Shown here: one piece after another, positions 11,633 through 49,260 of the stretch
How the letters are laid out: every line of letters starts with the position of its first letter
How positions within the stretch are numbered: position 1 is the stretch's first letter
From: Trichobilharzia regenti
Lineage: Eukaryota; Platyhelminthes; Trematoda; Strigeidida; Schistosomatidae
DNA length: 64,000 nucleotides
NCBI GenBank assembly: GCA_944472135.2
Contig: OX235263.1
Location: 26,155,379-26,219,378 of the forward strand
Direction of reading: 5' to 3'
Translations under genes and position numbers: made by a program
Notes under the pieces: generated by a model
What the model saw: only the letters and a program-made list of their open reading frames with translations
Told to the model about the DNA's origin: nothing
Databases searched by the model: none

Positions 11633-11644
11633 AATTTTAATTTG

Positions 11645-19107: not shown

Positions 19108-19189
19108 TTTTGATGTGGTTTTGTTCTCTGAGCTGGATAGTTAGTTTGCAAACTAACTATCCAGCTCAGAGAACAAAACCACATCAAAA
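19108..19189. repeat. 82-bp perfect palindrome
   Basis: Two 41-bp arms are exact reverse complements with no spacer; the centre is the TTTGCAAA at 19145-19152. The flanking bases stop matching at 19107/19190. It could extrude as a cruciform, or be an inverted repeat formed during repair. Confidence 0.95.
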
Positions 19190-22131: not shown

Positions 22132-22670
22132 TGATATATATATATATATATATATATATGGTGGTCTCTCTTTCTGTTTGCTCGCTTAGTCTGTGACCAT
22201 TTCACTTTGATGAACCTGTCTCCTTTAACAATGTATATTCCCCTTATATTATATATAATATGAGTGTTTGTTGACAGTCCGTTGCTTGGTGACATATCCA
22301 TATTATATGTGTGGTTGTTGACATGTCTGCTATATTTTGCTATGTATATATGGATCGACACTCCATTATAATTAGCCATTCATGTTAAGACTGTCTATTG
22401 ATTTGTTTACACACTTTGTCTGGACATTCATATATATTTCGCTCACACAATCTTGTGTGACTTACTTTGGTGTGATACCACTTATTGCGTCTCCTTGTGT
22501 TTGGAAAGTAGAAGTATCATCGCAAACCTAATTGTCTTCTGATTTCCGTCTTTCTTGCGTCAGGACTATTAAATTCTCGACCAGTACATAGCAATAATTT
22601 GGCGACGAGTACATAACAATTTGGCGACGGGGAAAACTACTATTAACCACTCAGCAGCAGCAACATAACA
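22132..22670 (-). mobile_element. LTR-like insertion inside the RTE element
   Basis: A 539-bp block is flanked by the 5-bp direct repeat CTTAT (22127-22131 and 22671-22675). Read on the minus strand it starts TGTTATGT and ends TATCA, the TG...CA ends of an LTR. It holds two TTGGCGACG motifs near its plus-strand end and a TA run at the other. It looks like a solo LTR of a Ty3/Gypsy-type element. The same insertion sits in the mirrored arm, so it predates the arm duplication. Confidence 0.65.
22136..22159. repeat. (TA)n microsatellite differing between arms
   Basis: This TA run is 6 bp longer than its mirror at 44.51-44.53 kb. It is the cause of the change in mirror offset. Confidence 0.9.
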
Positions 22671-24357: not shown

Positions 24358-24640
24358 ATGCGAGTAGTTGGATTAATACTACTTTGTTTGTATGCTTTGA
24401 GTTCTGCTCTGTCTCGGAACATTCCACCTAATTTTGATTTTCACTCTCTGAGTCGAACTCACAAGTAAGTTCCAAAATACACTTAATTGTTTGTCTGTCA
24501 TAATTTGACTCTACCATTCATTCATAACATGCATAAATTGACTATGTTCTTCGATCTTGTATTTTGTCTCTAGTCACTGCTTATTTCCAAGAGAAATATT
24601 GACTATACTCCCCTCACTTGTCCAATTCTACTGTAAATAG
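24358..24640 (+). CDS. Candidate two-exon small secreted protein (left copy)
   Basis: Exon 1 (24358-24464) starts with an ATG and encodes a textbook signal peptide, MRVVGLILLCLYALSSALS, then a polar RNIPPNFDF segment. It ends in phase 2 at a strong AA|GTAAGT donor. A TTTTGTCTCTAG acceptor opens exon 2 (24574-24640), which stays in frame to a TAG after FYCK. The product would be 57 residues, about 38 of them mature. Two extra cysteines lie in exon 2. No TATA box is seen; a CAG just before the ATG could be a trans-splice acceptor. A family is not recognised. It may be one end of a longer gene if exon 2 uses the internal GTAAAT donor. Confidence 0.4.
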
Positions 24641-24687
24641 TCAGGCTATGTCGAAAACAGACAGACAGACAGACAAATAGTCAGGCT
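24635..24687 (-). mobile_element. 27-bp RTE tail insertion with 13-bp TSD
   Basis: A 27-bp piece (24648-24674) that looks like an RTE 3' terminus with its CAGA-repeat tail is flanked by perfect direct repeats AAATAGTCAGGCT (24635-24647 and 24675-24687). It overlaps the stop codon of the candidate gene without altering it. Confidence 0.75.
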
Positions 24688-25242
24688 TTTAACACTGAAT
24701 AATTTGTCTACTCACATCATCCTCGGAAGTGTTTTGTCTAAACTTTCTATCTATGACTGCAAGTCACCGTGAAAAGTGTGTTCAAGCGTTTTGTCACTTC
24801 TAATCTGATTTAGTTGAGTATGTTCGCATTTGAAGAGAATCCACGAAACTGAGCGAATTCGTATCTGTTAAAGTTAATGATAAGAAATGATTATAAGACA
24901 GGACTAAGTTATAATGCGAGGAAAACTACAGTCACAGGTGAATTTTCCCGTCACGTTACCTCCAATATAACTATAACATTTTCCACACACCGCCATTATT
25001 GAACATTGTAGGGAGAAGTCAAAGTGATGTCAAAATATCATTATTATTGTTATTGTTAGTATTATTTTTACAATTATCACTGCTGATACTATTATTATTA
25101 TTATTACATATCACTACTAAAGTCTAATCAAGTGAAAGAGAAAAGAAGAAGCACGTTGTCTTCAAATGATTCGTGAAGACAGTCGAATACATAGACATGG
25201 ATTACGGTAGTAAACGTCCTGTCAGTGAGTGGTATGCATCCT

Positions 25243-28200
25243 TCAGGGACAGAAGAAATAATTCAAAAAGGATGAATGAATGAATAGTTTAAACAAAACC
25301 GAGGACGATACTGAAGGAATGAAAAACGCTTCATAAAGTGAATCAACCACTAATTTTCGACATTTTCAGTCCCAAATGACTGAATTACTCGAATCAATTG
25401 TACTCCAGTTGATACGCTGGATCATACATGTCCTTCATGCATTCAAACGTGGGCAAGACGTGTACTAAGCACCTCACTTAAAAGCATCATATCAGTTAAC
25501 TGCCACAACAATCAGTCAGAAGGTAGCGGAAGCTTCCCATCTAACTATAATACCGATTCTCGAAATTTTCACTACACAATGTTTAGTTATTCATTAGATG
25601 TGAACATCTCACCTACTTGTCTCTAAACACCAACACAACATTATTCAATAGGACATGAGATGTGTTGAAAGAGACTACACGATAAGTAGACTGATCTTCG
25701 CCAAAAGGATAGTGTGGATTGATTCTGGTACATAAACTCACCCTCATACTCGTCTTAACTTTCTCATAGATTGATCTGGTTTCTATAAAGAGAAGATGGA
25801 GTTTGTAGTCAAAAAAGGTTCACTTGATATGTATACTTAAACAGGCGCATGTGAGAAAACAGATAAAATGTTGTAAGTCCATCGTTTCTAATCATCGAAA
25901 CAAGTATCCGCATAGTACTCGAAAAATCTGAGTGTGAGATGCTAACTCACCTCCGACTCAACCTTTACGACATACTAGACTGTTGGAAGCGCCTTGCAAA
26001 ATACTCGACTCCAAATTTTTCAACTTACCATAAGCTATCACTGACAGGTGTTGCAAATGACTGAGATTTATTACCCGTTGAGTCAATTGGTTTATTTCTG
26101 GAAAGGAAGGCAAAGTGCAAGCACATATCATGGATAGGCATGGTGATTTGTGGACAAATGAGGATGGGAAGAAGCATTGCTTATTCGGAAGACGGGAATA
26201 TTGAGCGAAACAGTGTACAATTCTCAATTCAACCCCACTCAGGAGACTGAAAACATATATACATATATAGGCCACAGCTTTCCCAGTAGGCAGTGGACGG
26301 TTTTCAATATCTCGCATCGTTACCTACATATTGAAGATCAATCAAATGGTCAGAGACAATTAGCGACAAGAAACTCGAGGAACAAACCAACCACCCAGGA
26401 ACCTACTGATCAAGAAATATGCTGGAGGAAATGGAGATGCATCAGACAAACGTTGAGGAGGCCATCGGTTGACATCGCTCACCAGGCCATCTCTCGGACA
26501 GGACATGAGTGGACATCGACGAGTAGGGTGTGTCCCTGAGGGTAGTGACATTGAGGAGGTCATGTTGAGGGCTGATGAGAACCCATAGGCAATCTTGACG
26601 CCAGCTGAAAAGGACCGCAGAGAATAGGAAGAAGTGGAGATGTGGAGCGGCTGAAGCCCTATGTCCCACTTGAAACTCAAGGGAACAATAATATTAGCAG
26701 TAATACAATCCTAGAAATACGGTCAGTGGAAAGTTCTCTGAAAGAAGAATTATCATGGTATTTATAAGTAAGTAGACAAACTGGTCGAAGAAGCAGCCAG
26801 AGAAGACAGGACTCCAGGTAAACATAGACAAGACGGAGGTTATGAAAATAACCAACCAACAACAGCAACAACATCCAGCGTCAATCACCATCAACGGGAG
26901 GGATTTGAAAGAGGTTACTTCATTCATTTATCTAGGGAGCATTCTCTCAACTACAGGTAGTCAGAACGGACGAGGATGTCAAATCGAGCGAGAATTGGGA
27001 GGCGAGAAAAACATTCATCAACCTGGAACCAATCTGGAAATCTTCGTCACTCAGCCAACATCAACAACAAAATCCAGTCGGATTTTCAATACAAACGTCA
27101 AGTCAGTCAGTTCTTCTATACGGATCAGGAACTTGGCGGACAGGTCACAAAGAATATTTCCAACAGTCTGTTGCAGACCTCTATTAACAACTGTCTTCGC
27201 TGGATCTATACTGAAGATCAGATGGCCGGGCCGGAAAGAATCACCAACAAGGAACTATGGGAACAAACAAAGCAAGAAACAATCGCCCAAAAAATATGTA
27301 GGAGAAAGTGGAGATGGATCGGACACTCGCTGAGGAGACCGCTGGCTGGCATCGCGCGCCAAGCCCTCGAGTGGAACCTGAAAGGGAGGCCGCGAGTGGG
27401 ACGTCCAAGGGTGATATGAAGGAGATGGTGTGAATAGGAGTTGAAAGAGTATGGACTAAAATGGATGCAGGTGAAAAGTACAGCAGAAGACAGAAGCAAG
27501 TGGAGACGTGCATCACCGTAGGAACCCAAGGGAGCAATAATAATAATAAGACCTTCACTTCGTAGTGAGTAGCTTCACCGTTTACGATAAACGTAGTATG
27601 ACAGTCACTGTCAATTGTTATTTAGCCGAATAATTTGACAAACATCTGTCTGTGAAATAGGAAGGATAAAAGTTGTGGAACATTCTTCCACAAAGCAATG
27701 ACATGTTTCGAATTACCTTCAGTGCGACTAACCGACAGAAGACTATCACATTCACTTAAATCCGGCTGTTGTCCGATACCTATTCAAGAAGAAAGAATAA
27801 TATTGACGGTATTTCGTCGGCTACAATGAACATGGTGTGTTCAGTATTAATGATCACCAGTATTCTGTGATTTGACTTACGGCTTGGACCGGCTGAAATA
27901 CACAGACGTCAACACATACAAACATATTACTCGTTTATCATGACATCGGAAATAATATGTACGTGTAGGTTGTGAATTCCGCCAACCTGTTGTTGGAGTT
28001 AAAGTGATTCTTGGTGGAGAAACAATGACTGAAAGATGTTAAGAGAGAGAAACCTGAAGTTTCGAATCTTCATAGGAACTGACCATGAGTCCATGAGCTG
28101 CTCGTCCTCGGATTAGGCGGTATGCACATTGTTGCCGACTAGGTTTCATTTGCTCCCAATTCACCTCTGAACACTGTGAGCGGCTGGGCATCAACTATTC

Positions 28201-31200
28201 AAAACGACGTGCTCATTCACAAAACGATTTTAGTGAGTAGCATCGGAGAGTAATCACCTGTTTTGTTTTTGACAGTCTCACTAACAAACCGAGTCCCAAC
28301 ACACTGGCACTGGTTCACAAAGTGACAACAGACGTATACAAAATCACTACTGGATATCAATTATTGTGCAGTGACTGACAAATTCATTCAAATATCCAAC
28401 AGATAAACACATCTGTCTTCCAGTCACACACCTGCGCTATCAACGATAACTAAGTTAGCATTTAAATACGTTGACTTGGCCAGAAGAATGAGAAACCGTA
28501 AGCAGAAGTGAAACTAATCTGCCCAACCAATAATATCAGCGCTTACATTCAGATCCATGGCTTAACGATTCCTCCAGAGAGTTCTACTCTGAGGTATGGA
28601 GAAGAAATTCCCTGAATAAAATGCAAAAAGGACAGAATATTTATCGACCAGTAGTTTAAAAATCACGTGTCACGCTGGTCGAATGGCACAAATTCAATGG
28701 ATAATTTCATGTTTGTCTCCCCATCTGGGAAATATTAGTGGCCTATAGTTCAGGCTTTTCAGCGAGTAAATCAACTGAGTCCGTTTCGTCAACATCTTTC
28801 GCCATTACGTATCATTGAGCAGAGATTGGATGAAATGCTAGATACGCTTGTAGTCTCCTATACTGGTTGTATCCAAGTGACTGAAAGTGAAATGTGGGAT
28901 GAGCATCTTAAGCAGCTGAAAGCAGTCTGCCACACTCACACTCATCTTTCAACAGCAGCAGTGTGACACAACTCAATTTCATTCACAAATCAGCCTCGAC
29001 ACTTCGCCGATTGAAATACAAAGCGAACAAGATCAAACAGAATGTGGTATGAATTATGAGAGCGTACTTACCGTATGCCTGCCGCACCCTATTGATGCTC
29101 CGTGAAATGCCTGAGGAAAGAAATGAATACACGACAGATTCAAGATAGACAACAAGTGGGATAATAAAAGGCGATTAATTCTTAACCATGAGATACCCAA
29201 GTTGAATAGGTAGCACTATTCAGACACATTGTTTAAACACCTGAACATCATCCTTCACATGTCTGTGTGATATTCAGTAGTGGCGTTAATTCAAAGTCTA
29301 TTTAACGAGAGATTTCAATAGTCTAGTAAATTTTTTTGCAGGTTAAAGATGAACAACAAACATTTCACGTACTTCTGTAAATATCCGGTTGGTAGTAGTG
29401 TTGAGAAATATTGGATAGACAACTCGCAACTAAAAGAACGATTATTTCTCAATATTGATTAAATTTGTTGACTTACACGCAGTGATACTTTTACCCGTTT
29501 CTCTGGCCTGTCTTTCCAAGCGGGCTGGAGTGAGAAAGAGACAAACAGTTTGTTGCAAGACACTGGAGACAGTGTTGTCAATATTGCTCGTTTCTGAACT
29601 ATTGAAATAAAAGCTGATGAATAAACGGACGGTAGTGTGGCATCACCAGTTCTCTGTCTCCAATGATACCTAGATATTGATGTTTACACACACTTGAACA
29701 GCGTTCGACAATTGTTTACTGCGTGTTCATGTACAAAGTATTTAATATCCTCCAGCGACTAGTAAAGCAAAGCCACACATTCACTTCAAAACACAAAAGC
29801 TTTGTACGAAACATTGCGAAACTGATATTAGTTGTATTGTGACTGTCATCAAATTACTGGATGTAAGTCTACATCACACCACTGACATCCTTAGTAGGGA
29901 GGGTAAATAGAGGCTGTGAACACTCCACGTTTGTTGAAGGATTAAGACAGGGAGAAAGAGAGGGTTACGTGTAAAGCCTAGTTATCTTGTAGTTGCAAGT
30001 GATACCATTGTGATGAATAAATATCACTAGAAACATCATCCGGGGAATAAACCTCTTTCACTCTGTCATATGTCCAACAATCACATTAAATTTCAACTGT
30101 ACACTACCACTAACAGAGAGTTGAAGTAACACGCATACTATCTGTCTGTCTGTCTGTTTTCGACATAGAACTTTGCACAAATGTGCGGAAGTTCAAGTCG
30201 CCACATTCCGTGTAGCAAGCGAAGCAACAGGAGAAAGTACAAGAAAAGCATAATAGAAACAGTGAGCAGACGTCTGAGACAAAGGAGTAATAAAGAAATA
30301 CAAAACAGTTTCATTGAAGATCATAAGTCACAGGAAGTGGATGCAACTGCGCCACGCATACTATTGAGTCGAAGCATCACCGACACAACAAATTAAGAAA
30401 TAACATACAAAATTTCACATGGTAAGTAAAAGCAGGCTTGTAAAAGCACCTTCCAATGTGTTCACTTCTTCTTCCACAGTGGCTTTCCGATTATTGACAT
30501 CCACTATACTGTCTGTAAAACAATTGCAAATGTTCCACAAATGAATTATTAATGACTATAGAAATCATGGTTAATGTCAAAACTGATCATCAGTCACGCT
30601 GAATTCGTCTACATTCACAAAGGGTTTCAGTGTTACACGCTGAATATGCTTCCATCAATCAACTCAAACGCAGATAATTGCAAATTCGGAGAGAATACGA
30701 TAAATCATTCAACAAATAAAAATGAAAATGAACGTAGACTCTATTACTTCATCAAATGTTAGGCGAATGTATGAAATATTGAAGAACATTGAATAGAATT
30801 TGCTTACTTTCAAACATGCTGATGATAATTTCTAAATCGTGTATCTCTCGAGCAAGACGATTCGCATCTTCAAAACAAGAAGGCTAAGCGTCAATTCATT
30901 GCATTAAGCTTGGTCGAATGTTATGACTTGTTCAATTTCAAGAATGAGTGACATAGAGTAAATGTGTGCTGGAATGTTTCCCATTATATGAGGCTGAATA
31001 ATACTGGTTGATATGTTCAATGAGTAACTTATATAAGAGAATATCTCACTCGAGAATACGTAACGATACTGCTTGAAATATCCTCTCACTCACTCCAGAA
31101 GAAGTAACTTTTGTCCTGCTCGAGAATCCTAGTTCTCAAACTGCATTCAGGGGTTAACTGCCACAGATGCAAACTGACTAGCTTCTCACCACAACCACCT

Positions 31201-32475
31201 ACCCAATGTGAGTACATTGAGGATTCATCATTTCACTTTTAGGAAATATGAAATGATGAAGTCGATTCCCGCATATCTACAGCGTGCAGATTCCCAGAGT
31301 TCAACGCTATCGTCCTGCTGGACTAGATGAAGTTGTTTCACTTGCTGCATTTCTTTGCAGGATTTACATGATGTCTCACCACCAGACTATTCGATAATAG
31401 CCTAAAATTAGCTGACAAACTACTAATTGTGGAGAGAAATGTTCAAAAGCTTGACATCTATTATGACTAATCACCACCACTATCTCCCATTTTACAATAT
31501 TTTGTAATCGATTTCAGCCTAGCAAGTTTGTCACACAAATACGACGATTTATTTTGACACCCCATAACTAATCTGTTATTCTACGTTAAAAATGTATCCG
31601 CCACATAACTGGTCTTTATTGTAACGACAACAAATGTTATATTTTATAATTGTAAGAACCTGAAGAGAAATTATTGGAAAGAATATTATCCGTTCAGATT
31701 GGCTTTTAATTCATTGTAGAATCCTTGAATATTCATTCCTGAGTTGGCTGGATATTCGACAAGCAACTTCACATTTCAAAAGAATTTACAAGTCAGAAAC
31801 AATTCGATTACAGCAGACTAATGGCAACATGAATGCTTAAATTACTGTTCAATATGCAATGACTCACTGTAATAATACTGAGGCGGCGGATTAGCTTCAG
31901 AAAAGGAGAAATAATTAATTAATTATATGCGAAACTCAGCATTTTTAATCAAAGGAATCACTAGATCAACAGAGAGGGACAGTCGTTCATCTATTATTTC
32001 GTGGAGAGACCACCTAAATGCTTGTCTTGTACACTCAACCTGCACTGAGTACGTGTTTCAAATTGATGCGACTCAAGATGAGTTTGTAGTCATGAAAATG
32101 AAATCATCAATGTACACAATTCGTGCAACAGAAACGTATGCAATGTATGCGAGTTCGTGTTATCGGTGTGTGTCAGATAAATGAATAGATAGGGTTGTCA
32201 TACCGTACCTCAAATTCATCAGAAAATGATATTCATATCGACGTCTGATAGATCTGATCGAATCGAGTGGTTCATACATTCACACAAATCACTGATTATC
32301 ACATACTCTGAAGGTAGTTGTCAGAAGTGAGTTATCTACTTTTAAGGTAGTTTCAAAATATTTAAAGTGCAATATATACACACAACGAAATTAACTGGCA
32401 CTTACCTGTCAGTGGAGATGAACGCAGGAGAAGGAGGAACACAGTGATTTCTAATGATAGGAAAGCGAAAGCCAT
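25243..32475 (-). CDS. Candidate micro-exon gene, left copy
   Basis: Exact mirror of the gene at 34194-41426, which carries the full description. Exons on the minus strand, 5' to 3': 32406-32475, 31868-31894, 30808-30867, 30450-30512, 29564-29593 (weak), 29495-29524, 29072-29110, 28588-28611, 28165-28194, 27987-28028, 27881-27892, 27717-27779, 26029-26097, 25750-25782 and a possible terminal exon at 25243-25310. I checked the first two and the tenth directly on this strand; splice sites and coding bases match. The TATA box is at 32505-32512. Confidence 0.5.
26340..26697 (+). pseudogene. RTE C-terminal fragment
   Basis: Encodes the final RTE segment (CWRKWRCIRQTLRRP) and the 3' end with the GAAGCCCTATGT motif and GGGAACAATAATATT terminus. 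It lies in an intron of the micro-exon candidate. The mirror copy is at 39972-40329. Confidence 0.75.
26790..27555 (+). pseudogene. RTE (SR3/Perere-like) C-terminal fragment
   Basis: A second, longer RTE piece: after a short polymerase remnant come SITINGRDLKEVTSFIYLGS, a frameshift near 26980, then FQYKRQVSQFFYTDQE, CLRWIYTEDQMAGPER, RRKWRWIGHSLRRPLAG and a GGGAGCAATAATAATAATAA 3' end. The frame change splits it over two overlapping ORFs. It is an intronic insertion. Mirror copy at 39114-39879. Confidence 0.82.
30130..30364 (-). mobile_element. 211-bp RTE 3'-end insertion with TSD
   Basis: 30142-30352 is the 3' UTR of an RTE element in minus orientation, matching the 3' end of the element at 24.0-24.17 kb, with a CAGA-repeat tail. 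Perfect 12-bp direct repeats CACGCATACTAT flank it (30130-30141 and 30353-30364). It sits in an intron of the micro-exon candidate. Mirror copy at 36305-36539. Confidence 0.85.
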
Positions 32476-32504
32476 GATTATGTGTAATTCCGTGAAATCT
32501 GATG

Positions 32505-32512
32505 TATTTATA
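32505..32512 (-). promoter_or_regulatory. TATA box of left micro-exon gene
   Basis: TATAAATA on the minus strand, 30 bp upstream of the exon 1 ATG at 32475. Mirror of 34157-34164. Confidence 0.5.
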
Positions 32513-32766
32513 TGAATTTGTATTCTAGAGATTCAAAGGAACAAATGAAAGACGCGAAGATATCGGACCATTTCCAAGTAACTTTAATTACTTACGTCCA
32601 ATTATTCTTGGCATGATTATCACTACTATAAATAAATTGAACTCTATAACAGAATGTGAACAATTTTCTTCAAAGAAGGTGTAATTATTCAGAAAGAAAA
32701 GGTAAATTTTGGTATTATTTCATATGAGAATTTCTTCACTATAATAACTTATTCTTGTGTTAGAAG

Positions 32767-32958
32767 ATGGTCGGTGTTATAATTGCATTAAAATGTATGA
32801 GAACCGCAGTCACTTTGTTATGTTTGCGCCCACTAATTATTGTTATTACGCTAATGACTATAATGAACTCAACTGGTACGCCAATATGCTTATATGCTTC
32901 TGGTACCTTCCGATTTACTGAGTCACGCAAACATCCGAAGAAAAAGGCTGGCCTGTGA
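32767..32958 (+). CDS. Possible small membrane or secreted ORF (left copy)
   Basis: A 63-codon frame with an N-terminal hydrophobic stretch (about residues 12-34, including LIIVITLMTIM) and a basic tail ending HPKKKAGL. A GTACGC donor after NSTG could make it a first exon instead. It faces away from the micro-exon gene across about 290 bp, which could be a shared regulatory region. Coding status is unproven. The mirror copy is at 33711-33902. Confidence 0.2.
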   Translation: MVGVIIALKCMRTAVTLLCLRPLIIVITLMTIMNSTGTPICLYASGTFRFTESRKHPKKKAGL

Positions 32959-33096
32959 CTGTGAGAAGCTTTATGGTACTGTATATTGTAATACAAATTA
33001 TTAGGAAAACAACACATGGTATTTATACATTTTACAACATAGTGTTAAGTAATTCAGTGATGTGTTTGGACTGGCTATTAGAATGTCATTCGTGTT

Positions 33097-33572: not shown

Positions 33573-33630
33573 TATACGAATGACACTCTAATAGCCAGTT
33601 CAAACACATCACTGAATTACTTAACACTAT
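33404..33630 (+). repeat. Dispersed ~230-bp repeat, copy 2
   Basis: Second copy of the 19796-20030 repeat. Its last ~55 bp belong to the right arm and so also occur inverted in the left arm at 33040-33096; the first ~170 bp are spacer only. Confidence 0.85.
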
Positions 33631-33710
33631 GTTGTAAAATGTATAAATACCATGTGTTGTTTTCCTAATAATTTGTATTACAATATACAGTACCATAAAG
33701 CTTCTCACAG

Positions 33711-33902
33711 TCACAGGCCAGCCTTTTTCTTCGGATGTTTGCGTGACTCAGTAAATCGGAAGGTACCAGAAGCATATAAGCATATTGGCGTACCAGTTGA
33801 GTTCATTATAGTCATTAGCGTAATAACAATAATTAGTGGGCGCAAACATAACAAAGTGACTGCGGTTCTCATACATTTTAATGCAATTATAACACCGACC
33901 AT
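33711..33902 (-). CDS. Possible small membrane or secreted ORF (right copy)
   Basis: Mirror of 32767-32958, identical in translation. Same reservations apply. Confidence 0.2.
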   Translation of the reverse strand: MVGVIIALKCMRTAVTLLCLRPLIIVITLMTIMNSTGTPICLYASGTFRFTESRKHPKKKAGL

Positions 33903-34156
33903 CTTCTAACACAAGAATAAGTTATTATAGTGAAGAAATTCTCATATGAAATAATACCAAAATTTACCTTTTCTTTCTGAATAATTACACCTTCTTTGAA
34001 GAAAATTGTTCACATTCTGTTATAGAGTTCAATTTATTTATAGTAGTGATAATCATGCCAAGAATAATTGGACGTAAGTAATTAAAGTTACTTGGAAATG
34101 GTCCGATATCTTCGCGTCTTTCATTTGTTCCTTTGAATCTCTAGAATACAAATTCA

Positions 34157-34164
34157 TATAAATA
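34157..34164 (+). promoter_or_regulatory. TATA box of right micro-exon gene
   Basis: TATAAATA with the exon 1 ATG at 34194. A start about 30 bp downstream of the box would leave a 5' UTR of only a few bases. Confidence 0.5.
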
Positions 34165-34193
34165 CATCAGATTTCACGGAATTACACATAATC

Positions 34194-37100
34194 ATGGCTT
34201 TCGCTTTCCTATCATTAGAAATCACTGTGTTCCTCCTTCTCCTGCGTTCATCTCCACTGACAGGTAAGTGCCAGTTAATTTCGTTGTGTGTATATATTGC
34301 ACTTTAAATATTTTGAAACTACCTTAAAAGTAGATAACTCACTTCTGACAACTACCTTCAGAGTATGTGATAATCAGTGATTTGTGTGAATGTATGAACC
34401 ACTCGATTCGATCAGATCTATCAGACGTCGATATGAATATCATTTTCTGATGAATTTGAGGTACGGTATGACAACCCTATCTATTCATTTATCTGACACA
34501 CACCGATAACACGAACTCGCATACATTGCATACGTTTCTGTTGCACGAATTGTGTACATTGATGATTTCATTTTCATGACTACAAACTCATCTTGAGTCG
34601 CATCAATTTGAAACACGTACTCAGTGCAGGTTGAGTGTACAAGACAAGCATTTAGGTGGTCTCTCCACGAAATAATAGATGAACGACTGTCCCTCTCTGT
34701 TGATCTAGTGATTCCTTTGATTAAAAATGCTGAGTTTCGCATATAATTAATTAATTATTTCTCCTTTTCTGAAGCTAATCCGCCGCCTCAGTATTATTAC
34801 AGTGAGTCATTGCATATTGAACAGTAATTTAAGCATTCATGTTGCCATTAGTCTGCTGTAATCGAATTGTTTCTGACTTGTAAATTCTTTTGAAATGTGA
34901 AGTTGCTTGTCGAATATCCAGCCAACTCAGGAATGAATATTCAAGGATTCTACAATGAATTAAAAGCCAATCTGAACGGATAATATTCTTTCCAATAATT
35001 TCTCTTCAGGTTCTTACAATTATAAAATATAACATTTGTTGTCGTTACAATAAAGACCAGTTATGTGGCGGATACATTTTTAACGTAGAATAACAGATTA
35101 GTTATGGGGTGTCAAAATAAATCGTCGTATTTGTGTGACAAACTTGCTAGGCTGAAATCGATTACAAAATATTGTAAAATGGGAGATAGTGGTGGTGATT
35201 AGTCATAATAGATGTCAAGCTTTTGAACATTTCTCTCCACAATTAGTAGTTTGTCAGCTAATTTTAGGCTATTATCGAATAGTCTGGTGGTGAGACATCA
35301 TGTAAATCCTGCAAAGAAATGCAGCAAGTGAAACAACTTCATCTAGTCCAGCAGGACGATAGCGTTGAACTCTGGGAATCTGCACGCTGTAGATATGCGG
35401 GAATCGACTTCATCATTTCATATTTCCTAAAAGTGAAATGATGAATCCTCAATGTACTCACATTGGGTAGGTGGTTGTGGTGAGAAGCTAGTCAGTTTGC
35501 ATCTGTGGCAGTTAACCCCTGAATGCAGTTTGAGAACTAGGATTCTCGAGCAGGACAAAAGTTACTTCTTCTGGAGTGAGTGAGAGGATATTTCAAGCAG
35601 TATCGTTACGTATTCTCGAGTGAGATATTCTCTTATATAAGTTACTCATTGAACATATCAACCAGTATTATTCAGCCTCATATAATGGGAAACATTCCAG
35701 CACACATTTACTCTATGTCACTCATTCTTGAAATTGAACAAGTCATAACATTCGACCAAGCTTAATGCAATGAATTGACGCTTAGCCTTCTTGTTTTGAA
35801 GATGCGAATCGTCTTGCTCGAGAGATACACGATTTAGAAATTATCATCAGCATGTTTGAAAGTAAGCAAATTCTATTCAATGTTCTTCAATATTTCATAC
35901 ATTCGCCTAACATTTGATGAAGTAATAGAGTCTACGTTCATTTTCATTTTTATTTGTTGAATGATTTATCGTATTCTCTCCGAATTTGCAATTATCTGCG
36001 TTTGAGTTGATTGATGGAAGCATATTCAGCGTGTAACACTGAAACCCTTTGTGAATGTAGACGAATTCAGCGTGACTGATGATCAGTTTTGACATTAACC
36101 ATGATTTCTATAGTCATTAATAATTCATTTGTGGAACATTTGCAATTGTTTTACAGACAGTATAGTGGATGTCAATAATCGGAAAGCCACTGTGGAAGAA
36201 GAAGTGAACACATTGGAAGGTGCTTTTACAAGCCTGCTTTTACTTACCATGTGAAATTTTGTATGTTATTTCTTAATTTGTTGTGTCGGTGATGCTTCGA
36301 CTCAATAGTATGCGTGGCGCAGTTGCATCCACTTCCTGTGACTTATGATCTTCAATGAAACTGTTTTGTATTTCTTTATTACTCCTTTGTCTCAGACGTC
36401 TGCTCACTGTTTCTATTATGCTTTTCTTGTACTTTCTCCTGTTGCTTCGCTTGCTACACGGAATGTGGCGACTTGAACTTCCGCACATTTGTGCAAAGTT
36501 CTATGTCGAAAACAGACAGACAGACAGATAGTATGCGTGTTACTTCAACTCTCTGTTAGTGGTAGTGTACAGTTGAAATTTAATGTGATTGTTGGACATA
36601 TGACAGAGTGAAAGAGGTTTATTCCCCGGATGATGTTTCTAGTGATATTTATTCATCACAATGGTATCACTTGCAACTACAAGATAACTAGGCTTTACAC
36701 GTAACCCTCTCTTTCTCCCTGTCTTAATCCTTCAACAAACGTGGAGTGTTCACAGCCTCTATTTACCCTCCCTACTAAGGATGTCAGTGGTGTGATGTAG
36801 ACTTACATCCAGTAATTTGATGACAGTCACAATACAACTAATATCAGTTTCGCAATGTTTCGTACAAAGCTTTTGTGTTTTGAAGTGAATGTGTGGCTTT
36901 GCTTTACTAGTCGCTGGAGGATATTAAATACTTTGTACATGAACACGCAGTAAACAATTGTCGAACGCTGTTCAAGTGTGTGTAAACATCAATATCTAGG
37001 TATCATTGGAGACAGAGAACTGGTGATGCCACACTACCGTCCGTTTATTCATCAGCTTTTATTTCAATAGTTCAGAAACGAGCAATATTGACAACACTGT

Positions 37101-40100
37101 CTCCAGTGTCTTGCAACAAACTGTTTGTCTCTTTCTCACTCCAGCCCGCTTGGAAAGACAGGCCAGAGAAACGGGTAAAAGTATCACTGCGTGTAAGTCA
37201 ACAAATTTAATCAATATTGAGAAATAATCGTTCTTTTAGTTGCGAGTTGTCTATCCAATATTTCTCAACACTACTACCAACCGGATATTTACAGAAGTAC
37301 GTGAAATGTTTGTTGTTCATCTTTAACCTGCAAAAAAATTTACTAGACTATTGAAATCTCTCGTTAAATAGACTTTGAATTAACGCCACTACTGAATATC
37401 ACACAGACATGTGAAGGATGATGTTCAGGTGTTTAAACAATGTGTCTGAATAGTGCTACCTATTCAACTTGGGTATCTCATGGTTAAGAATTAATCGCCT
37501 TTTATTATCCCACTTGTTGTCTATCTTGAATCTGTCGTGTATTCATTTCTTTCCTCAGGCATTTCACGGAGCATCAATAGGGTGCGGCAGGCATACGGTA
37601 AGTACGCTCTCATAATTCATACCACATTCTGTTTGATCTTGTTCGCTTTGTATTTCAATCGGCGAAGTGTCGAGGCTGATTTGTGAATGAAATTGAGTTG
37701 TGTCACACTGCTGCTGTTGAAAGATGAGTGTGAGTGTGGCAGACTGCTTTCAGCTGCTTAAGATGCTCATCCCACATTTCACTTTCAGTCACTTGGATAC
37801 AACCAGTATAGGAGACTACAAGCGTATCTAGCATTTCATCCAATCTCTGCTCAATGATACGTAATGGCGAAAGATGTTGACGAAACGGACTCAGTTGATT
37901 TACTCGCTGAAAAGCCTGACCTATAGGCCACTAATATTTCCCAGATGGGGAGACAAACATGAAATTATCCATTGAATTTGTGCCATTCGACCAGCGTGAC
38001 ACGTGATTTTTAAACTACTGGTCGATAAATATTCTGTCCTTTTTGCATTTTATTCAGGGAATTTCTTCTCCATACCTCAGAGTAGAACTCTCTGGAGGAA
38101 TCGTTAAGCCATGGATCTGAATGTAAGCGCTGATATTATTGGTTGGGCAGATTAGTTTCACTTCTGCTTACGGTTTCTCATTCTTCTGGCCAAGTCAACG
38201 TATTTAAATGCTAACTTAGTTATCGTTGATAGCGCAGGTGTGTGACTGGAAGACAGATGTGTTTATCTGTTGGATATTTGAATGAATTTGTCAGTCACTG
38301 CACAATAATTGATATCCAGTAGTGATTTTGTATACGTCTGTTGTCACTTTGTGAACCAGTGCCAGTGTGTTGGGACTCGGTTTGTTAGTGAGACTGTCAA
38401 AAACAAAACAGGTGATTACTCTCCGATGCTACTCACTAAAATCGTTTTGTGAATGAGCACGTCGTTTTGAATAGTTGATGCCCAGCCGCTCACAGTGTTC
38501 AGAGGTGAATTGGGAGCAAATGAAACCTAGTCGGCAACAATGTGCATACCGCCTAATCCGAGGACGAGCAGCTCATGGACTCATGGTCAGTTCCTATGAA
38601 GATTCGAAACTTCAGGTTTCTCTCTCTTAACATCTTTCAGTCATTGTTTCTCCACCAAGAATCACTTTAACTCCAACAACAGGTTGGCGGAATTCACAAC
38701 CTACACGTACATATTATTTCCGATGTCATGATAAACGAGTAATATGTTTGTATGTGTTGACGTCTGTGTATTTCAGCCGGTCCAAGCCGTAAGTCAAATC
38801 ACAGAATACTGGTGATCATTAATACTGAACACACCATGTTCATTGTAGCCGACGAAATACCGTCAATATTATTCTTTCTTCTTGAATAGGTATCGGACAA
38901 CAGCCGGATTTAAGTGAATGTGATAGTCTTCTGTCGGTTAGTCGCACTGAAGGTAATTCGAAACATGTCATTGCTTTGTGGAAGAATGTTCCACAACTTT
39001 TATCCTTCCTATTTCACAGACAGATGTTTGTCAAATTATTCGGCTAAATAACAATTGACAGTGACTGTCATACTACGTTTATCGTAAACGGTGAAGCTAC
39101 TCACTACGAAGTGAAGGTCTTATTATTATTATTGCTCCCTTGGGTTCCTACGGTGATGCACGTCTCCACTTGCTTCTGTCTTCTGCTGTACTTTTCACCT
39201 GCATCCATTTTAGTCCATACTCTTTCAACTCCTATTCACACCATCTCCTTCATATCACCCTTGGACGTCCCACTCGCGGCCTCCCTTTCAGGTTCCACTC
39301 GAGGGCTTGGCGCGCGATGCCAGCCAGCGGTCTCCTCAGCGAGTGTCCGATCCATCTCCACTTTCTCCTACATATTTTTTGGGCGATTGTTTCTTGCTTT
39401 GTTTGTTCCCATAGTTCCTTGTTGGTGATTCTTTCCGGCCCGGCCATCTGATCTTCAGTATAGATCCAGCGAAGACAGTTGTTAATAGAGGTCTGCAACA
39501 GACTGTTGGAAATATTCTTTGTGACCTGTCCGCCAAGTTCCTGATCCGTATAGAAGAACTGACTGACTTGACGTTTGTATTGAAAATCCGACTGGATTTT
39601 GTTGTTGATGTTGGCTGAGTGACGAAGATTTCCAGATTGGTTCCAGGTTGATGAATGTTTTTCTCGCCTCCCAATTCTCGCTCGATTTGACATCCTCGTC
39701 CGTTCTGACTACCTGTAGTTGAGAGAATGCTCCCTAGATAAATGAATGAAGTAACCTCTTTCAAATCCCTCCCGTTGATGGTGATTGACGCTGGATGTTG
39801 TTGCTGTTGTTGGTTGGTTATTTTCATAACCTCCGTCTTGTCTATGTTTACCTGGAGTCCTGTCTTCTCTGGCTGCTTCTTCGACCAGTTTGTCTACTTA
39901 CTTATAAATACCATGATAATTCTTCTTTCAGAGAACTTTCCACTGACCGTATTTCTAGGATTGTATTACTGCTAATATTATTGTTCCCTTGAGTTTCAAG
40001 TGGGACATAGGGCTTCAGCCGCTCCACATCTCCACTTCTTCCTATTCTCTGCGGTCCTTTTCAGCTGGCGTCAAGATTGCCTATGGGTTCTCATCAGCCC

Positions 40101-41426
40101 TCAACATGACCTCCTCAATGTCACTACCCTCAGGGACACACCCTACTCGTCGATGTCCACTCATGTCCTGTCCGAGAGATGGCCTGGTGAGCGATGTCAA
40201 CCGATGGCCTCCTCAACGTTTGTCTGATGCATCTCCATTTCCTCCAGCATATTTCTTGATCAGTAGGTTCCTGGGTGGTTGGTTTGTTCCTCGAGTTTCT
40301 TGTCGCTAATTGTCTCTGACCATTTGATTGATCTTCAATATGTAGGTAACGATGCGAGATATTGAAAACCGTCCACTGCCTACTGGGAAAGCTGTGGCCT
40401 ATATATGTATATATGTTTTCAGTCTCCTGAGTGGGGTTGAATTGAGAATTGTACACTGTTTCGCTCAATATTCCCGTCTTCCGAATAAGCAATGCTTCTT
40501 CCCATCCTCATTTGTCCACAAATCACCATGCCTATCCATGATATGTGCTTGCACTTTGCCTTCCTTTCCAGAAATAAACCAATTGACTCAACGGGTAATA
40601 AATCTCAGTCATTTGCAACACCTGTCAGTGATAGCTTATGGTAAGTTGAAAAATTTGGAGTCGAGTATTTTGCAAGGCGCTTCCAACAGTCTAGTATGTC
40701 GTAAAGGTTGAGTCGGAGGTGAGTTAGCATCTCACACTCAGATTTTTCGAGTACTATGCGGATACTTGTTTCGATGATTAGAAACGATGGACTTACAACA
40801 TTTTATCTGTTTTCTCACATGCGCCTGTTTAAGTATACATATCAAGTGAACCTTTTTTGACTACAAACTCCATCTTCTCTTTATAGAAACCAGATCAATC
40901 TATGAGAAAGTTAAGACGAGTATGAGGGTGAGTTTATGTACCAGAATCAATCCACACTATCCTTTTGGCGAAGATCAGTCTACTTATCGTGTAGTCTCTT
41001 TCAACACATCTCATGTCCTATTGAATAATGTTGTGTTGGTGTTTAGAGACAAGTAGGTGAGATGTTCACATCTAATGAATAACTAAACATTGTGTAGTGA
41101 AAATTTCGAGAATCGGTATTATAGTTAGATGGGAAGCTTCCGCTACCTTCTGACTGATTGTTGTGGCAGTTAACTGATATGATGCTTTTAAGTGAGGTGC
41201 TTAGTACACGTCTTGCCCACGTTTGAATGCATGAAGGACATGTATGATCCAGCGTATCAACTGGAGTACAATTGATTCGAGTAATTCAGTCATTTGGGAC
41301 TGAAAATGTCGAAAATTAGTGGTTGATTCACTTTATGAAGCGTTTTTCATTCCTTCAGTATCGTCCTCGGTTTTGTTTAAACTATTCATTCATTCATCCT
41401 TTTTGAATTATTTCTTCTGTCCCTGA
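34194..41426 (+). CDS. Candidate micro-exon gene (MEG-like), secreted product
   Basis: Exon 1 (34194-34263) encodes a signal peptide, MAFAFLSLEITVFLLLLRSS, and ends in phase 1 at G|GTAAGT. Internal exons, all symmetric and phase 1: 34775-34801 (27 nt), 35802-35861 (60), 36157-36219 (63), 37076-37105 (30, weak), 37145-37174 (30), 37559-37597 (39), 38058-38081 (24), 38475-38504 (30), 38641-38682 (42), 38777-38788 (12), 38890-38952 (63), 40572-40640 (69), 40887-40919 (33; a G|GTGAGT donor 8 nt later would break the phase). A possible terminal exon is 41359-41426 (TGA). Joined, the frame stays open for about 220 codons. Exons 3, 4 and 13 encode amphipathic, coiled-coil-like helices; the 27-nt exon is NPPPQYYY. 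Schistosome MEGs are secreted proteins built from short symmetric exons. I picked exons partly by phase, so boundaries, especially the weak ones, may be wrong. Confidence 0.52.
36305..36539 (+). mobile_element. 211-bp RTE 3'-end insertion, mirror copy
   Basis: Mirror of 30130-30364, with the same 12-bp flanking repeats, in an intron of the right micro-exon candidate. Confidence 0.85.
39114..39879 (-). pseudogene. RTE C-terminal fragment, mirror copy
   Basis: Mirror of 26790-27555. It lies in the intron between the 63-nt and 69-nt exons of the micro-exon candidate, in antisense orientation. Confidence 0.82.
39972..40329 (-). pseudogene. RTE C-terminal fragment, mirror copy
   Basis: Mirror of 26340-26697, in the same intron. 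Confidence 0.75.
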
Positions 41427-42028
41427 AGGATGCATACCACTCACTGACAGGACGTTTACTACCGTAATCCATGTCTATGTATTCGACTGTCTTCACGAAT
41501 CATTTGAAGACAACGTGCTTCTTCTTTTCTCTTTCACTTGATTAGACTTTAGTAGTGATATGTAATAATAATAATAATAGTATCAGCAGTGATAATTGTA
41601 AAAATAATACTAACAATAACAATAATAATGATATTTTGACATCACTTTGACTTCTCCCTACAATGTTCAATAATGGCGGTGTGTGGAAAATGTTATAGTT
41701 ATATTGGAGGTAACGTGACGGGAAAATTCACCTGTGACTGTAGTTTTCCTCGCATTATAACTTAGTCCTGTCTTATAATCATTTCTTATCATTAACTTTA
41801 ACAGATACGAATTCGCTCAGTTTCGTGGATTCTCTTCAAATGCGAACATACTCAACTAAATCAGATTAGAAGTGACAAAACGCTTGAACACACTTTTCAC
41901 GGTGACTTGCAGTCATAGATAGAAAGTTTAGACAAAACACTTCCGAGGATGATGTGAGTAGACAAATTATTCAGTGTTAAAAGCCTGACTATTTGTCTGT
42001 CTGTCTGTCTGTTTTCGACATAGCCTGA

Positions 42029-42311
42029 CTATTTACAGTAGAATTGGACAAGTGAGGGGAGTATAGTCAATATTTCTCTTGGAAATAAGCAGTGACTAGA
42101 GACAAAATACAAGATCGAAGAACATAGTCAATTTATGCATGTTATGAATGAATGGTAGAGTCAAATTATGACAGACAAACAATTAAGTGTATTTTGGAAC
42201 TTACTTGTGAGTTCGACTCAGAGAGTGAAAATCAAAATTAGGTGGAATGTTCCGAGACAGAGCAGAACTCAAAGCATACAAACAAAGTAGTATTAATCCA
42301 ACTACTCGCAT
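42029..42311 (-). CDS. Candidate two-exon small secreted protein (right copy)
   Basis: Mirror of 24358-24640: exon 1 at 42205-42311 and exon 2 at 42029-42095, minus strand. The start codon, splice sites and frame are kept; two substitutions lie just upstream of the ATG. It converges tail-to-tail on the micro-exon candidate, with about 600 bp between their stops. Confidence 0.4.
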
Positions 42312-42493
42312 TACTGACACTGGAGAACCCCATTCAATCGAATAAACTTTTCGGTAACTCCTAATCAAGTCTGTAACTAATGGATAAACTAACCAAGGTG
42401 ATCACACAATTAACAACATGATGACATATTGATAATAAGTAATAACAAAAATGTAGTCAGTCAGTATATGTTTGTAGGGGTAGAGCGATGGTT

Positions 42494-45400
42494 ATATCTC
42501 TCTCTCTCCGTTTTTGACATAGAACTTTGTACCGATGGGCAGCAGTTCAAGTCGCCATACTCCATGCAGCACACAAAGCAACAGAAGAAGGTAGAAGAAA
42601 CGCATATTAGGGACAGTAAAAAGAGGTGTGAGCCAAAGAAATAGTAATAACGAAGAACAAGACAGTTTCATTGAAAATCGTAAGTCACAAGGAGTGGATG
42701 CATCTGCGCTGTCATTGAGAACGATTTTAAGCCATATCACCAATTGTTTTCAACCATTGGTTTTTACAGTCCCGAAGAAGTCTGCACTTTTCTAAAAGGC
42801 TTAAACTAATTGTTGTAGATTTCATTGACTGGTAACATGTTTTGGTTTAACCGCCGCTAGCTCTTTTACAGCCTGACCCTATGTCAGCTAACATTGCCCA
42901 TAGAGTAAGGTGATGACTAGGCATTCGTCACACATGTCCTAACCATCTCAGTCGCTGTAATTTCACAGCCTTGACGATCGATTTCTTCTCCTTACCTAGC
43001 ACTTGACGCCTAACCTCAGTATTGCTCACCTTATTATACTACTTCACACGGGAGATAGAGCTCAGGCACCTATGATCAAAGACAACTAATCTTTTCATGT
43101 CTTCCACTGTCAATGGCCAGGTCTCACAGCCATAAAGGAGGACGGAGTTGACTCATGGGAATTACACCCGCCCTTTGGTCGATAGTCGGATATCACGTCT
43201 ACGCCAGAGACAGCGTAAATTGGCATATGCGAAACTAGCCCTCTGTATCCATGCTGAGATTTTGTCAGAGATCAACCCGTTGGGGCTGATGATAATTCCC
43301 AAATAAGTGAAGCAGTCAACGTGCTCTACCACTTCACTTCCTATTTCTAATGTAGTTGTCCGTGTAGTCCAGTCCTGTAACATCATCTTGCAGTTGAGGG
43401 GAGCGAATCGCATGCCAAACATTCGTAGATTGCAGCTCAAAGGGTTCAGAAGACTGTACATTTTGTCAGCGTCCTCGCCTAGAAGGACTGTATCGTCTGC
43501 ATATTCTAAGTCAACTAGATTATTCCCTGCTGGCAAGTCAATCCCTGAGTCGTTGAAGTGAGTTAGGGTTAAGTCCATCAGTACATCTATGATGAAATTG
43601 AATAGAAATGGGGATAATGGGCATCCCTGATGGACACCACCAGTCGTTACCACTTCAGGTGACAACTCGCCGTAAGCCCTCACCTGGCTGATGGCATGAG
43701 TTCGAGTAGAGTGCCGTGATCAGTGAAATGTATTTTCTCATCATTCCCTTTACAGCCAAGCATCGCGAGAGAACCTCTCGGTTGACAGAATTGAATTCCG
43801 CCTTCAGGTCAAAAAATATAATGACTGTTGGACGCCAGTAGGAATGCCTATGTTCTAGAATCTGTCGGAGGGTGAAGATATGATCAATACACCCTCTTCT
43901 TGGTCTAAAGCCTGCCTGGCTCTCTCGTGTTTGTGCATCCAGAACACCACTTAGTCAACGCAATATTATTGAGCCTAGGACTTTAGATACTATATAAGTG
44001 TTATGTTGCTGCTGCTGAGTGGTTAATAGTAGTTTTCCCCGTCGCCAAATTGTTATGTACTCGTCGCCAAATTATTGCTATGTACTGGTCGAGAATTTAA
44101 TAGTCCTGACGCAAGAAAGACGGAAATCAGAAGACCACTAGGTTTGCGATGATACTTCTATTTTCCAAACACAAGGAGACGCAATAAGTGGTATCACACC
44201 AAAGTAAGTCACACAAGATTGTGTGAGCGAAATATATATGAATGTCCAGACAAAGTGTGTGAACAAATCAATAGACAGTCTTAACATGAATGGCTAATTA
44301 TAATGGAGTGTCGATCCATATATACATAGCAAAATATAGCAGACATGTCAACAACCACACATATAATATGGATATGTCACCAAGCAACGGACTGTCAACA
44401 AACACTCATATTATATATAATATAAGGGGAATATACATTGTTAAAGGAGACAGGTTCATCAAAGTGAAATGGTCACAGACTAAGCGAGCAAACAGAAAGA
44501 GAGACCACCATATATATATATATATATATCAATAAGTCAAGCTAGTCCCTCTGTGATTATCACAGGAAGACTTGTCTCCCTTCTCGTATATGGGGATAAT
44601 CAGTGACTTACAACAGCCCGACGGGACTTCTTCTGATTCCCAGACGCTGCCTAGTACTTCAGTTAATGCAGACAGTAAGCTGTCTCCACCGTACTTAAAT
44701 ACCTCTGCAGTTATTCCATCAGGTCCCGCTGCTTTGCCTAGTTTCAGATTGGTGACAGCTTTAGTTACCTCAGTTAAGGAAGGGGGATCTGTGTCTATAT
44801 CTCATTCAGGGAGGTGTTGGATGTTCGGCAGGTTGAGCTTGGCTGTAGGCCAGTCAAACTGCTCCTCATAGTGTCCTTTCCAGCGTTCCAGTCGTCTATC
44901 CTGGGAGCTAAATACGGTACCATTTTTATCAGAGATTGTTTCACTTATCATTTGCCTTTTACCACCTGTTTCCTTGATAAGCCTAAATAGTTGTCTGGTG
45001 TTACCAATTTCCGATGCCTTTTCCATCTCTTTCGCTTTTATCGCCGACCACTGTTCACGGGCTTTGCGAAGACTTCTTGTTAGTTTTCGTTTGAGTACCT
45101 TTCGCCCCTCATCATAATCGGAGCTCGCCGGAATCAGTCGTCTTGCGTCAATCAGTTCGGATGAGGCGGTAAGATCCAATAGCTCTTACTAACTTTTGGT
45201 TTTAGCCTATAATCAACTTTTACCGCTGTGTCTGCAGCTAACTGTATGTTGTACCAGGCTACCTCAGGGAGAGTCCTGCTGTCAAACTCAGATACTCATT
45301 TCGTTATTTCTTCCTTAAATAGGGACTCAGTTCTCGATCTAGTTGAGGACGTAACTGTTTCTCTGCCGTCAATTTCTTATGTCTATTTAGTCGTAAGCAT

Positions 45401-45581
45401 AAACGTGCGCGAACCAGAGTGTGATCAGAGTCTACGCACGTGTTTCAGAAGGAGTGAAATTCTTCTACTGACCCTCACCAACGATACCCTATCGCTACGT
45501 GGTCTATCTGAGTCTATCTGAGTATAACTCAACCCTTCCTCTTACAGTTCATAAACTCTTGCATCCTACCTATTCTTCTTT
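42494..45581 (-). pseudogene. RTE-clade (SR2-like) retrotransposon, mirror copy
   Basis: Mirror of 21082-24175 but less damaged. The 173-codon frame at 43162-43683 runs from GVHQGCPLSPF through YADDTVLLGED to the thumb without the stop of the left copy, and the 125-codon frame at 44802-45179 covers the linker. Substitutions relative to the left arm are dense in two patches, about 43.30-43.51 and 44.58-44.77 kb. It runs into the gap. Confidence 0.88.
43999..44531 (+). mobile_element. LTR-like insertion, mirror copy
   Basis: Mirror of 22132-22670, reading TGTTATGT...TATCA on the plus strand, with flanking copies of the 5-bp duplication (ATAAG here) at 43994-43998 and 44532-44536. It is 6 bp shorter owing to the TA run. 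Confidence 0.65.
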
Positions 45582-45681
45582 NNNNNNNNNNNNNNNNNNN
45601 NNNNNNNNNNNNNNNNNNNNNNNNNNNNNNNNNNNNNNNNNNNNNNNNNNNNNNNNNNNNNNNNNNNNNNNNNNNNNNNNN
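45582..45681. other. Assembly gap (100 N)
   Basis: Exactly 100 Ns, usually a placeholder for a gap of unknown size. The palindrome's right arm enters it on one side and a CR1-like endonuclease on the other. Confidence 0.99.
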
Positions 45682-49035: not shown

Positions 49036-49260
49036 AACGCGGCCTGCTTGAACATAGGGCTACCAAAAATTCCACCTTACAACATTTTTCAAAATTGCTT
49101 TGGTTTGCTCTTTTAATTTTGTTTTAATTTATCAATAATGTGTCCTAATCGTATTATATATAATCGCGCATTTTTAAAATCATTACAGCCTACCGCGTTG
49201 TGTCATCCACAAAAATTGAGAAAAAAGCTTCACTGTGGCTGGCAGCGTGCACTGAAACGT

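What the first reader, a model, noticed from the sequence alone, without database searches (positions are those of the whole stretch)
34194..41426. A candidate micro-exon gene not explained by any transposon
Between the transposons of the right arm lies a chain of 13-14 short exons (12-69 nt), each between AG and GT, each a multiple of 3 and all phase 1. They join into one open frame that starts with a TATA box and a signal peptide. Several splice sites are strong without reference to phase (34264, 34802, 35862, 37598, 38789, 40641). Schistosome micro-exon genes have exactly this architecture and make secreted, variable proteins. A further 15-nt exon at 34362-34376 is possible. I searched for symmetric exons, so chance matches are a real risk for the weaker ones.
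Basis: partly seen in the sequence, partly recalled or inferred. Interest (0 to 1): 0.88.

Follow-up and report, generated by a model that had tools for sequence, protein, structure and literature searches.

The report
Fast-evolving micro-exon gene family, bird schistosome
The chain of tiny exons is very probably a real gene of a bird blood fluke, one of several dozen copies, some in mirror-image pairs, that keep the same exon pattern while part of the predicted secreted protein changes unusually fast.

Summary
The window appears to be from Trichobilharzia regenti. The gene belongs to a family with at least 34 matches that begin at exon 1. I aligned 18 copies with the window gene. With first and last exons the model has 12 exons and 588 coding nt: signal-peptide-like exon, nine symmetric micro-exons (12-69 nt), a 41-nt exon and a stop exon. 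The 15-nt exon at 34362 and the end at 41426 are not; an exon at 37240-37296 is added. 14 of 19 aligned genes are intact. Exons 2-3 diverge more than any of 400 intron windows, exon 3 with dN/dS about 2. It meets a broad micro-exon-gene definition, not the strict 6-36 nt one. It lies in a near-perfect palindrome; two more inverted pairs stand on the same chromosome. No RNA evidence was available.

The parts
34157..34162 (+). TATAAA, 37 nt before the ATG
   Evidence: TATAAA 35-38 nt before the ATG in 14 of 19 aligned genes
34194..34263 (+). exon 1 (70 nt): ATG and signal-peptide-like hydrophobic stretch, ends in phase 1
   Evidence: ATG and length kept in 19 of 19, GT in 18 of 19
34775..34801 (+). 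exon 2 (27 nt), symmetric, phase 1, hypervariable; 24, 27 or 45 nt in relatives, 44 in one with a lost frame
35802..35861 (+). exon 3 (60 nt), symmetric, phase 1, hypervariable
   Evidence: (dN/dS 1.99, dN 3.5 times intron divergence)
36157..36219 (+). exon 4 (63 nt), symmetric, phase 1
37145..37192 (+). exon 5 (48 nt), symmetric, phase 1; amphipathic
37559..37597 (+). exon 6 (39 nt), symmetric, phase 1; amphipathic
38777..38788 (+). exon 7 (12 nt), symmetric, phase 1
38890..38952 (+). exon 8 (63 nt), symmetric, phase 1, one Cys in 19 of 19, slow-changing (dN/dS 0.49)
40572..40640 (+). exon 9 (69 nt), symmetric, phase 1
40887..40927 (+). exon 10 (41 nt), phase 1 to phase 0 (dN/dS 0.52), amphipathic
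41429..41467 (+). exon 11 (39 nt), preferred last coding exon with stop, read in phase 0
   Evidence: AG in 18 of 18, stop at the same place in 15 of 18; an acceptor at 41359 is a rival
25202..32475 (-). mirror copy of the whole gene in the left arm; one difference from the right copy, in an intron (37920)
21080..33093 (.). left arm of the palindrome
   Evidence: 99.45% over 12,014 columns, 58 mismatches
33576..45581 (.). right arm of the palindrome; ends at a 100-nt assembly gap (45582-45681)
34958..35211 (.). insertion in intron 2, without counterpart in 16 of 20 fetched relatives (present in L011, L012, L027, L028)
36317..36527 (.). short interspersed repeat in intron 4, without aligned counterpart in 20 of 20 fetched relatives; related copies at 23960-24170 and 42493-42709
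39126..39891 (.). retrotransposon fragments in intron 8, cleanly missing from relatives such as L019, L021 and L027, present in the nearest ones L011 and L012

Best explanation
The locus is an intact-looking gene of a large Trichobilharzia regenti family of micro-exon-type genes. Shown: 12 exons (the last less firmly), nine of them consecutive, symmetric and phase 1, kept in a family on three long contigs, with start codon, splice sites and frame maintained in most copies examined. Inferred: it makes a precursor of about 195 residues with a signal peptide; the mature part has two constant cysteines (exons 5b and 8, perhaps one disulphide) and several amphipathic helical segments. The part coded by exons 2-3, just after the signal peptide, is the variable face; exon 8 belongs to a slow-changing core. 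Most likely the worm secretes a set of variants that meet host (bird) molecules or antibodies. Variety comes mainly from gene duplication (tandem arrays, mirror-image pairs, arm-to-arm homogenisation) and possibly from exon skipping, which the uniform phase permits.
For: Family: 83 matching pieces, 34 beginning at query base 1, on C2, C3, C4, C261 and C415 (a lower bound, 40 of 3041 candidates scored). Exon model; reverse-strand control 0. 14 of 19 aligned genes intact at every splice site and frame of the model. Indels not a multiple of 3: 2 of 16 in exons (15 of the 16 are in exon 2) against 404 of 560 in introns; 1.6 against 6.7 per kb per sequence. dN/dS 1.99 for exon 3, 0.49 and 0.52 for exons 8 and 10 (76 pairs of 13 genes pooled). 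On five disjoint pairs exon 3 has pN 0.46 against intron 0.15 (P 1.4e-27) and against its own pS 0.28 (P 0.01); exon 8 pN 0.05 lies below intron (P 2.2e-6); exon 5 pN 0.13 lies below its pS 0.30 (P 0.008). Cys in exons 5b and 8 in 19 of 19. Helical moment above shuffles for exons 3, 5, 6 and 10, not for 1, 2, 4, 5b, 8, 9, 11.
Against: No transcript or peptide evidence. Over internal exons (exon 2 left out) the median dN/dS is 0.99, as under neutrality, and 37 of 76 pairs exceed 1; exon dS is also above intron divergence (median 1.39 times), so part of the exon divergence may come from exon exchange between copies or from homogenised introns and not from selection. On the five disjoint pairs pN against pS is not significant for exons 8 (P 0.23) and 10 (P 0.11), and exon 11 has pN above pS (P 0.044). 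An acceptor at 41359, also kept 18 of 18, has the stronger tract. Five of 19 copies are damaged or incomplete. Secretion and host contact are inferred.
Confidence: 0.85

Rival explanations
1. The sequence is a high-copy transposable element or a passively duplicated segment, and the exons are chance or the relics of a dead gene.
For: Many copies, transposon debris in and around them, four C3 copies about 14.47 kb apart in one direction, inverted pairs.
Against: Indels keep frame in exons but not in introns; 14 of 19 copies intact; 0 reverse-strand pairs; change differs by exon; transposon pieces are missing from relatives.
Confidence: 0.04
2. A real secreted multigene family with many short exons that is not descended from, and does not work like, the schistosome micro-exon genes; short symmetric exons arose separately.
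For: Only 2 of 10 internal exons are 36 nt or less, so the strict definition fails; six motifs published for the S. mansoni MEG clades have 0 matches in the separate exon readings.
Against: Nine consecutive symmetric exons under 70 nt meet the published operational test (PMC7653826); signal peptide, fast evolution, clustering and species-level expansion are all reported for MEGs (PMC4350168).
Confidence: 0.2
3. The palindrome around the gene is an assembly fold-back, so the mirror copy does not exist; the gene itself stands.
For: The right arm ends exactly at a 100-nt gap. Contig C415 carries the left arm at 99.9-100% next to a right arm only 97.9% alike over 2458 columns and without the 36317-36527 repeat.
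Against: The arms differ at 58 sites in all, unevenly: one in the gene, most in the outer arms, which a fold-back of one molecule would not give. Two other inverted pairs on C2 have the same layout, one with another start-to-start distance (1057 against 1719).
Confidence: 0.25

Closest known systems
Schistosome micro-exon genes (MEG superfamily; Schistosoma mansoni families)
   Same: Signal-peptide exon followed by a run of short exons divisible by three with long introns; clustered, species-expanded copies, some families large (MEG-17 with 22, MEG-25 with 15 members in the table of PMC4350168); high dN/dS in the mature part (same paper, sections 3, 9, 12 read).
   Different: Exons are mostly 39-69 nt, not 6-36 nt; 0 matches to six published clade motifs (PMC10526429, parts 1-2 of 5 read); copies in near-identical head-to-head pairs, which I did not see described in what I read.
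T. regenti relatives of MEG-4, MEG-8, MEG-9 and MEG-26 (PMC5825161, passages read)
   Same: Same organism, same gene class; amphipathic helices are described for MEG-26 and others.
Hymenolepis microstoma MEG cluster on chromosome 6 (PMC7653826, section 9 and passages read)
   Same: A single micro-exon gene family expanded by tandem duplication, sharing a motif that looks N-terminal.
   Different: A tapeworm; its printed consensus does not resemble exon 1 here (compared by eye only).

Membership tests
Micro-exon gene, broad definition (PMC7653826: at least 7 exons, micro-exons under 70 nt and divisible by 3 making at least half of exons, run of at least 4) | exon number, size and run | tested here: met
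   12 exons; nine consecutive exons of 12-69 nt divisible by 3; a model from comparison, not from transcripts
Micro-exon gene, strict definition (PMC5825161: about 80% of coding region in symmetric exons of 6-36 nt) | exon size 6-36 nt over most of the coding region | tested here: not met
   only exons 2 (27) and 7 (12) are 36 nt or less: 39 of 588 coding nt; symmetric exons of up to 69 nt make 438 of 588 (coordinates)
Micro-exon gene | signal peptide, secreted or membrane-anchored product | tested here: inconclusive
   exon 1 codes a short N-terminus with a long hydrophobic core, kept in 19 of 19; no signal-peptide program or experiment
Micro-exon gene | alternative splicing by exon skipping | not testable with these tools
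   uniform phase 1 allows it; no RNA data
S. mansoni MEG clades (PMC10526429) | published linear motifs of the two clades | tested here: inconclusive
   six regular expressions, 0 matches in 12 exon readings of 19 genes; exons were kept apart, so motifs across exon joints could not be seen
Named MEG families of S. mansoni or T. regenti | sequence similarity to a named member | not tested
Transposable element | own transposition proteins, or repeats spanning the exons | tested here: not met
   of the frames of 120 or more residues listed, one on the + strand (121 residues, 40346-40711) covers an exon (exon 9) and was not searched further; the reverse-transcriptase pieces lie in introns and are missing from relatives

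The most novel reading that the evidence does not exclude
A bird schistosome runs a variant-protein system in which mirror-image gene pairs are homogenised arm to arm while exon cassettes 2-3 are exchanged or driven to diverge between copies, so that copy number and conversion, more than alternative splicing, make the variety of a micro-exon protein.
Probability: 0.3. Interest if true: 0.78.

Novelty: new member of a known kind. Interest (0 to 1): 0.58.

Why it matters
Micro-exon genes are hard to find and less known outside Schistosoma. This family gives a dense natural experiment: at least 34 exon-1 matches in one genome, alignable introns as a yardstick, and an exon-by-exon contrast between slow and rapid change. 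It suggests that the class is expanded in a bird schistosome and points to exons 2-3 as the part that changes fastest. It also shows that reading one sequence by eye recovered most of a micro-exon chain that comparison then supported.

Tried and rejected
Rejected exons: 34362-34376 (AG and GT together in 5 of 19), 38641-38682 (AG in 6 of 19), the short donor at 37175 (GT in 5 of 19). A last exon opening at 41359 and read on towards 41426 keeps no common frame: it stops after 3-6 residues in 14 of 18; I had set its start one base off. A single-sequence splice scan was suggestive but weak: at score 8 or more 3 exons in phase 1, 2 in phase 0, 1 in phase 2, 0 on the minus strand (list). Four exon pieces (1, 4, 8, 9) against Pfam: 0 families. 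Six exon strings in the paper library: 0 papers. tRNA search: none. A mitochondrial species check (PF00115) did not complete, so the species rests on one transposon protein. A second census by the exon 8 region did not complete. Rows dropped: L023 (split by a large insertion) and L028 (partial) were not aligned, so 18 of 20 fetched copies plus the window gene make 19; L016, which lacks exons 9-10, was left out of the scans; one search used 13 of 19 genes and left out pairs with intron difference under 4% (76 of 78 pairs kept); the divergence windows used 11 genes.
Full report
What the window is. The reverse-transcriptase frame at 7764-10661 (-) is 100% identical, over the 78% of it that aligns, to a protein filed under Trichobilharzia regenti, a bird schistosome (lineage). 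The assembly has 954 Mb in 548 contigs; the window is C2:26155379-26219378. The species thus rests on one transposon protein, and a close sister species is not excluded; a mitochondrial check did not complete.

The gene is one of a family. The first 1.8 kb of the finding (34194-36000) matches 83 pieces in the genome at 72-100% identity, of which 34 begin at query base 1, that is at exon 1, including the window's two copies and two on contig C415. Only 40 of 3041 candidates were scored, so this is a lower bound. I fetched 20 copies; colinear similarity runs through the gene in most of them (about 33895 to 42000) and breaks where the window copy carries insertions: 36317-36527 has no aligned counterpart in 20 of 20, 34958-35211 none in 16 of 20, and 39126-39891 is cleanly missing from several, such as L019, L021 and L027, while the nearest copies L011 and L012 have it. 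The transposon pieces are therefore guests in introns.

Exon model. I aligned 18 copies with the window gene (L023 and L028 left out). At the proposed coordinates the supported exons keep AG, GT and frame in most rows. It returned 15 entries of pair and phase: 34775-34801, 35802-35861, 36157-36219, 37145-37192, 37240-37296, 37559-37597, 38777-38788, 38890-38952 and 40572-40640, all symmetric and open in phase 1 (37145-37192 and 38777-38788 also in phase 0), the 41-nt exon 40887-40927, and three other unsymmetric pairs (34775-34823, 35250-35301, 38890-38966). The reverse strand gave none. Rows are related and some nearly identical, so 16 of 18 is not 16 independent confirmations. The 41-nt exon moves the frame to phase 0, and the acceptor at 41429, kept in 18 of 18, opens a 12-residue end with the stop at the same place in 15 of 18. 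An acceptor at 41359 is also kept in 18 of 18 and has the better pyrimidine tract, but its reading stops after 3-6 residues in 14 of 18 and runs on in four, the window gene among them; I prefer 41429 with moderate confidence.

It is coding. Exons carry 1.6 indels per kb per sequence against 6.7 in introns; 2 of 16 exon indels are not a multiple of three, against 404 of 560 in introns; 15 of the 16 exon events are in exon 2 (counted against the window gene, so shared events count more than once). 14 of 19 genes are intact at every exon of the model. The others are L010 (exon 1 donor changed), L018 (exon 2 frame), L021 (exon 5 donor), L027 (exon 3 donor, exon 4 frame and stop, exon 5 stop) and L016 (exons 9-10 absent).

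Uneven evolution. Pooled over 76 pairs of 13 genes, dN/dS is 1.24 for exon 2, 1.99 for exon 3, 1.00, 1.00, 0.88 and 1.14 for exons 4, 5, 5b and 6, 1.46 for the tiny exon 7, 0.49 for exon 8, 0.73 for exon 9 and 0.52 for exon 10. dN is about 3.5 times the intron divergence in exons 2 and 3. No intron window out of 400 diverges as much as exon 2 or exon 3, and 387 of 400 diverge at least as much as exon 8. On five pairs that share no sequence, exon 3 has pN 0.46 against intron 0.151 (P 1.4e-27) and against its own pS 0.28 (P 0.01); exon 8 has pN 0.05, below intron (P 2.2e-6), but not significantly below its own pS (P 0.23); exon 5 has pN below pS (P 0.008); exon 11 has pN above pS (P 0.044). Against a simple reading: the median dN/dS over internal exons without exon 2 is 0.99, 37 of 76 pairs exceed 1, and exon dS itself is 1.39 times intron divergence. 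Exchange of exon cassettes between copies, or homogenised introns, would raise both dN and dS and could account for part of the effect.

Product, by inference. The model has 588 coding nt, about 195 residues. Exon 1 is a short N-terminus with a hydrophobic core. Cysteines in exons 5b and 8 are in 19 of 19 (a few copies have more elsewhere); N-glycosylation-type motifs occur in several exons; exons 3, 5, 6 and 10 have helical moments above shuffled controls, the other seven tested do not. I picture a secreted, partly helical protein with one disulphide, a variable front part and a slower-changing back part.

Surroundings. The gene lies in a palindrome: 21080-33093 and 33576-45581 are 99.45% identical over 12,014 columns, with 58 mismatches. 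Within the gene the two copies differ at one intron base; most differences lie in the outer arms. Two further inverted pairs on C2 have arms 99.8% alike (1145 nt compared) and 100% alike (2000 nt compared), while copies of different pairs are 93-96% alike; the start-to-start distance is 1719 in the window, in one other pair and on C415, and 1057 in the third. This suggests homogenisation within pairs. Two results count against taking the window's palindrome at face value: the right arm ends exactly at a gap, and C415 has the same left arm beside a right arm only 97.9% alike. C415 may be the other allele. On an intron tree the C3 copies group together and the C4 copies group together, and four C3 copies stand about 14.47 kb apart in one direction.

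Comparison with the known. By the operational rule of PMC7653826 (passages and section 9 read) it is a micro-exon gene. By the description in PMC5825161 (passages read: symmetric exons of 6-36 nt making about 80% of the coding region) it is not: 39 of 588 nt are in such exons. Six motifs that PMC10526429 (parts 1-2 of 5 read) gives for the two S. mansoni clades have 0 matches in the separate exon readings. PMC5825161 reports MEG-4, -8, -9 and -26 relatives in T. regenti; I had no sequences to compare. The papers listed by my six library searches (the lists were capped, in two of them at 15 of about 350) showed none on this family by title or start of abstract, which is not proof of absence. 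PMC4350168 (abstract and sections 3, 9 and 12 read) reports high dN/dS and species-level expansion for MEGs, with families of 15 and 22 members in S. mansoni, so a large family alone is not new.

Verdict. A real gene, with high probability, and an apparently undescribed large family of the micro-exon kind, well supported by comparison within one genome, without RNA evidence. The most surprising feature is the mirror-image pairing combined with fast change in two exons.

Noticed in passing
45582-45681: 100-nt run of N, an assembly gap, exactly at the end of the right palindrome arm.
   Followed up: partly
7761-11644 (-): Two neighbouring frames of a non-LTR retrotransposon: 966 residues (endonuclease and reverse transcriptase by its relatives) and 366 residues upstream.
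   Followed up: partly
49698-51932 (+) and 48529-53279: A 744-residue frame that looks like a reverse transcriptase (by eye), flanked by an inverted repeat of 507 nt at 99%.
   Followed up: no
23355-23432 (-): Match to Rfam mir-3492 (48.4 bits, gathering score 44) in the left arm; the mirror site in the right arm is not reported. Possibly repeat-derived.
   Followed up: no
19108-19189: Perfect 82-nt self-palindrome.
   Followed up: no
34194-41467 and relatives: Synonymous divergence of exons exceeds intron divergence (median 1.39 times), unexplained; exon exchange between copies is one possibility.
   Followed up: partly
L023; C3:26.37-26.41 Mb: Four copies of the family in one direction about 14.47 kb apart on C3.
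   Followed up: no
L003 and L004 (C415:1-6865): Unplaced contig with the same left arm and spacer as the window but a right arm 97.9% alike and lacking the 36317-36527 repeat: another allele or the true right side.
   Followed up: partly
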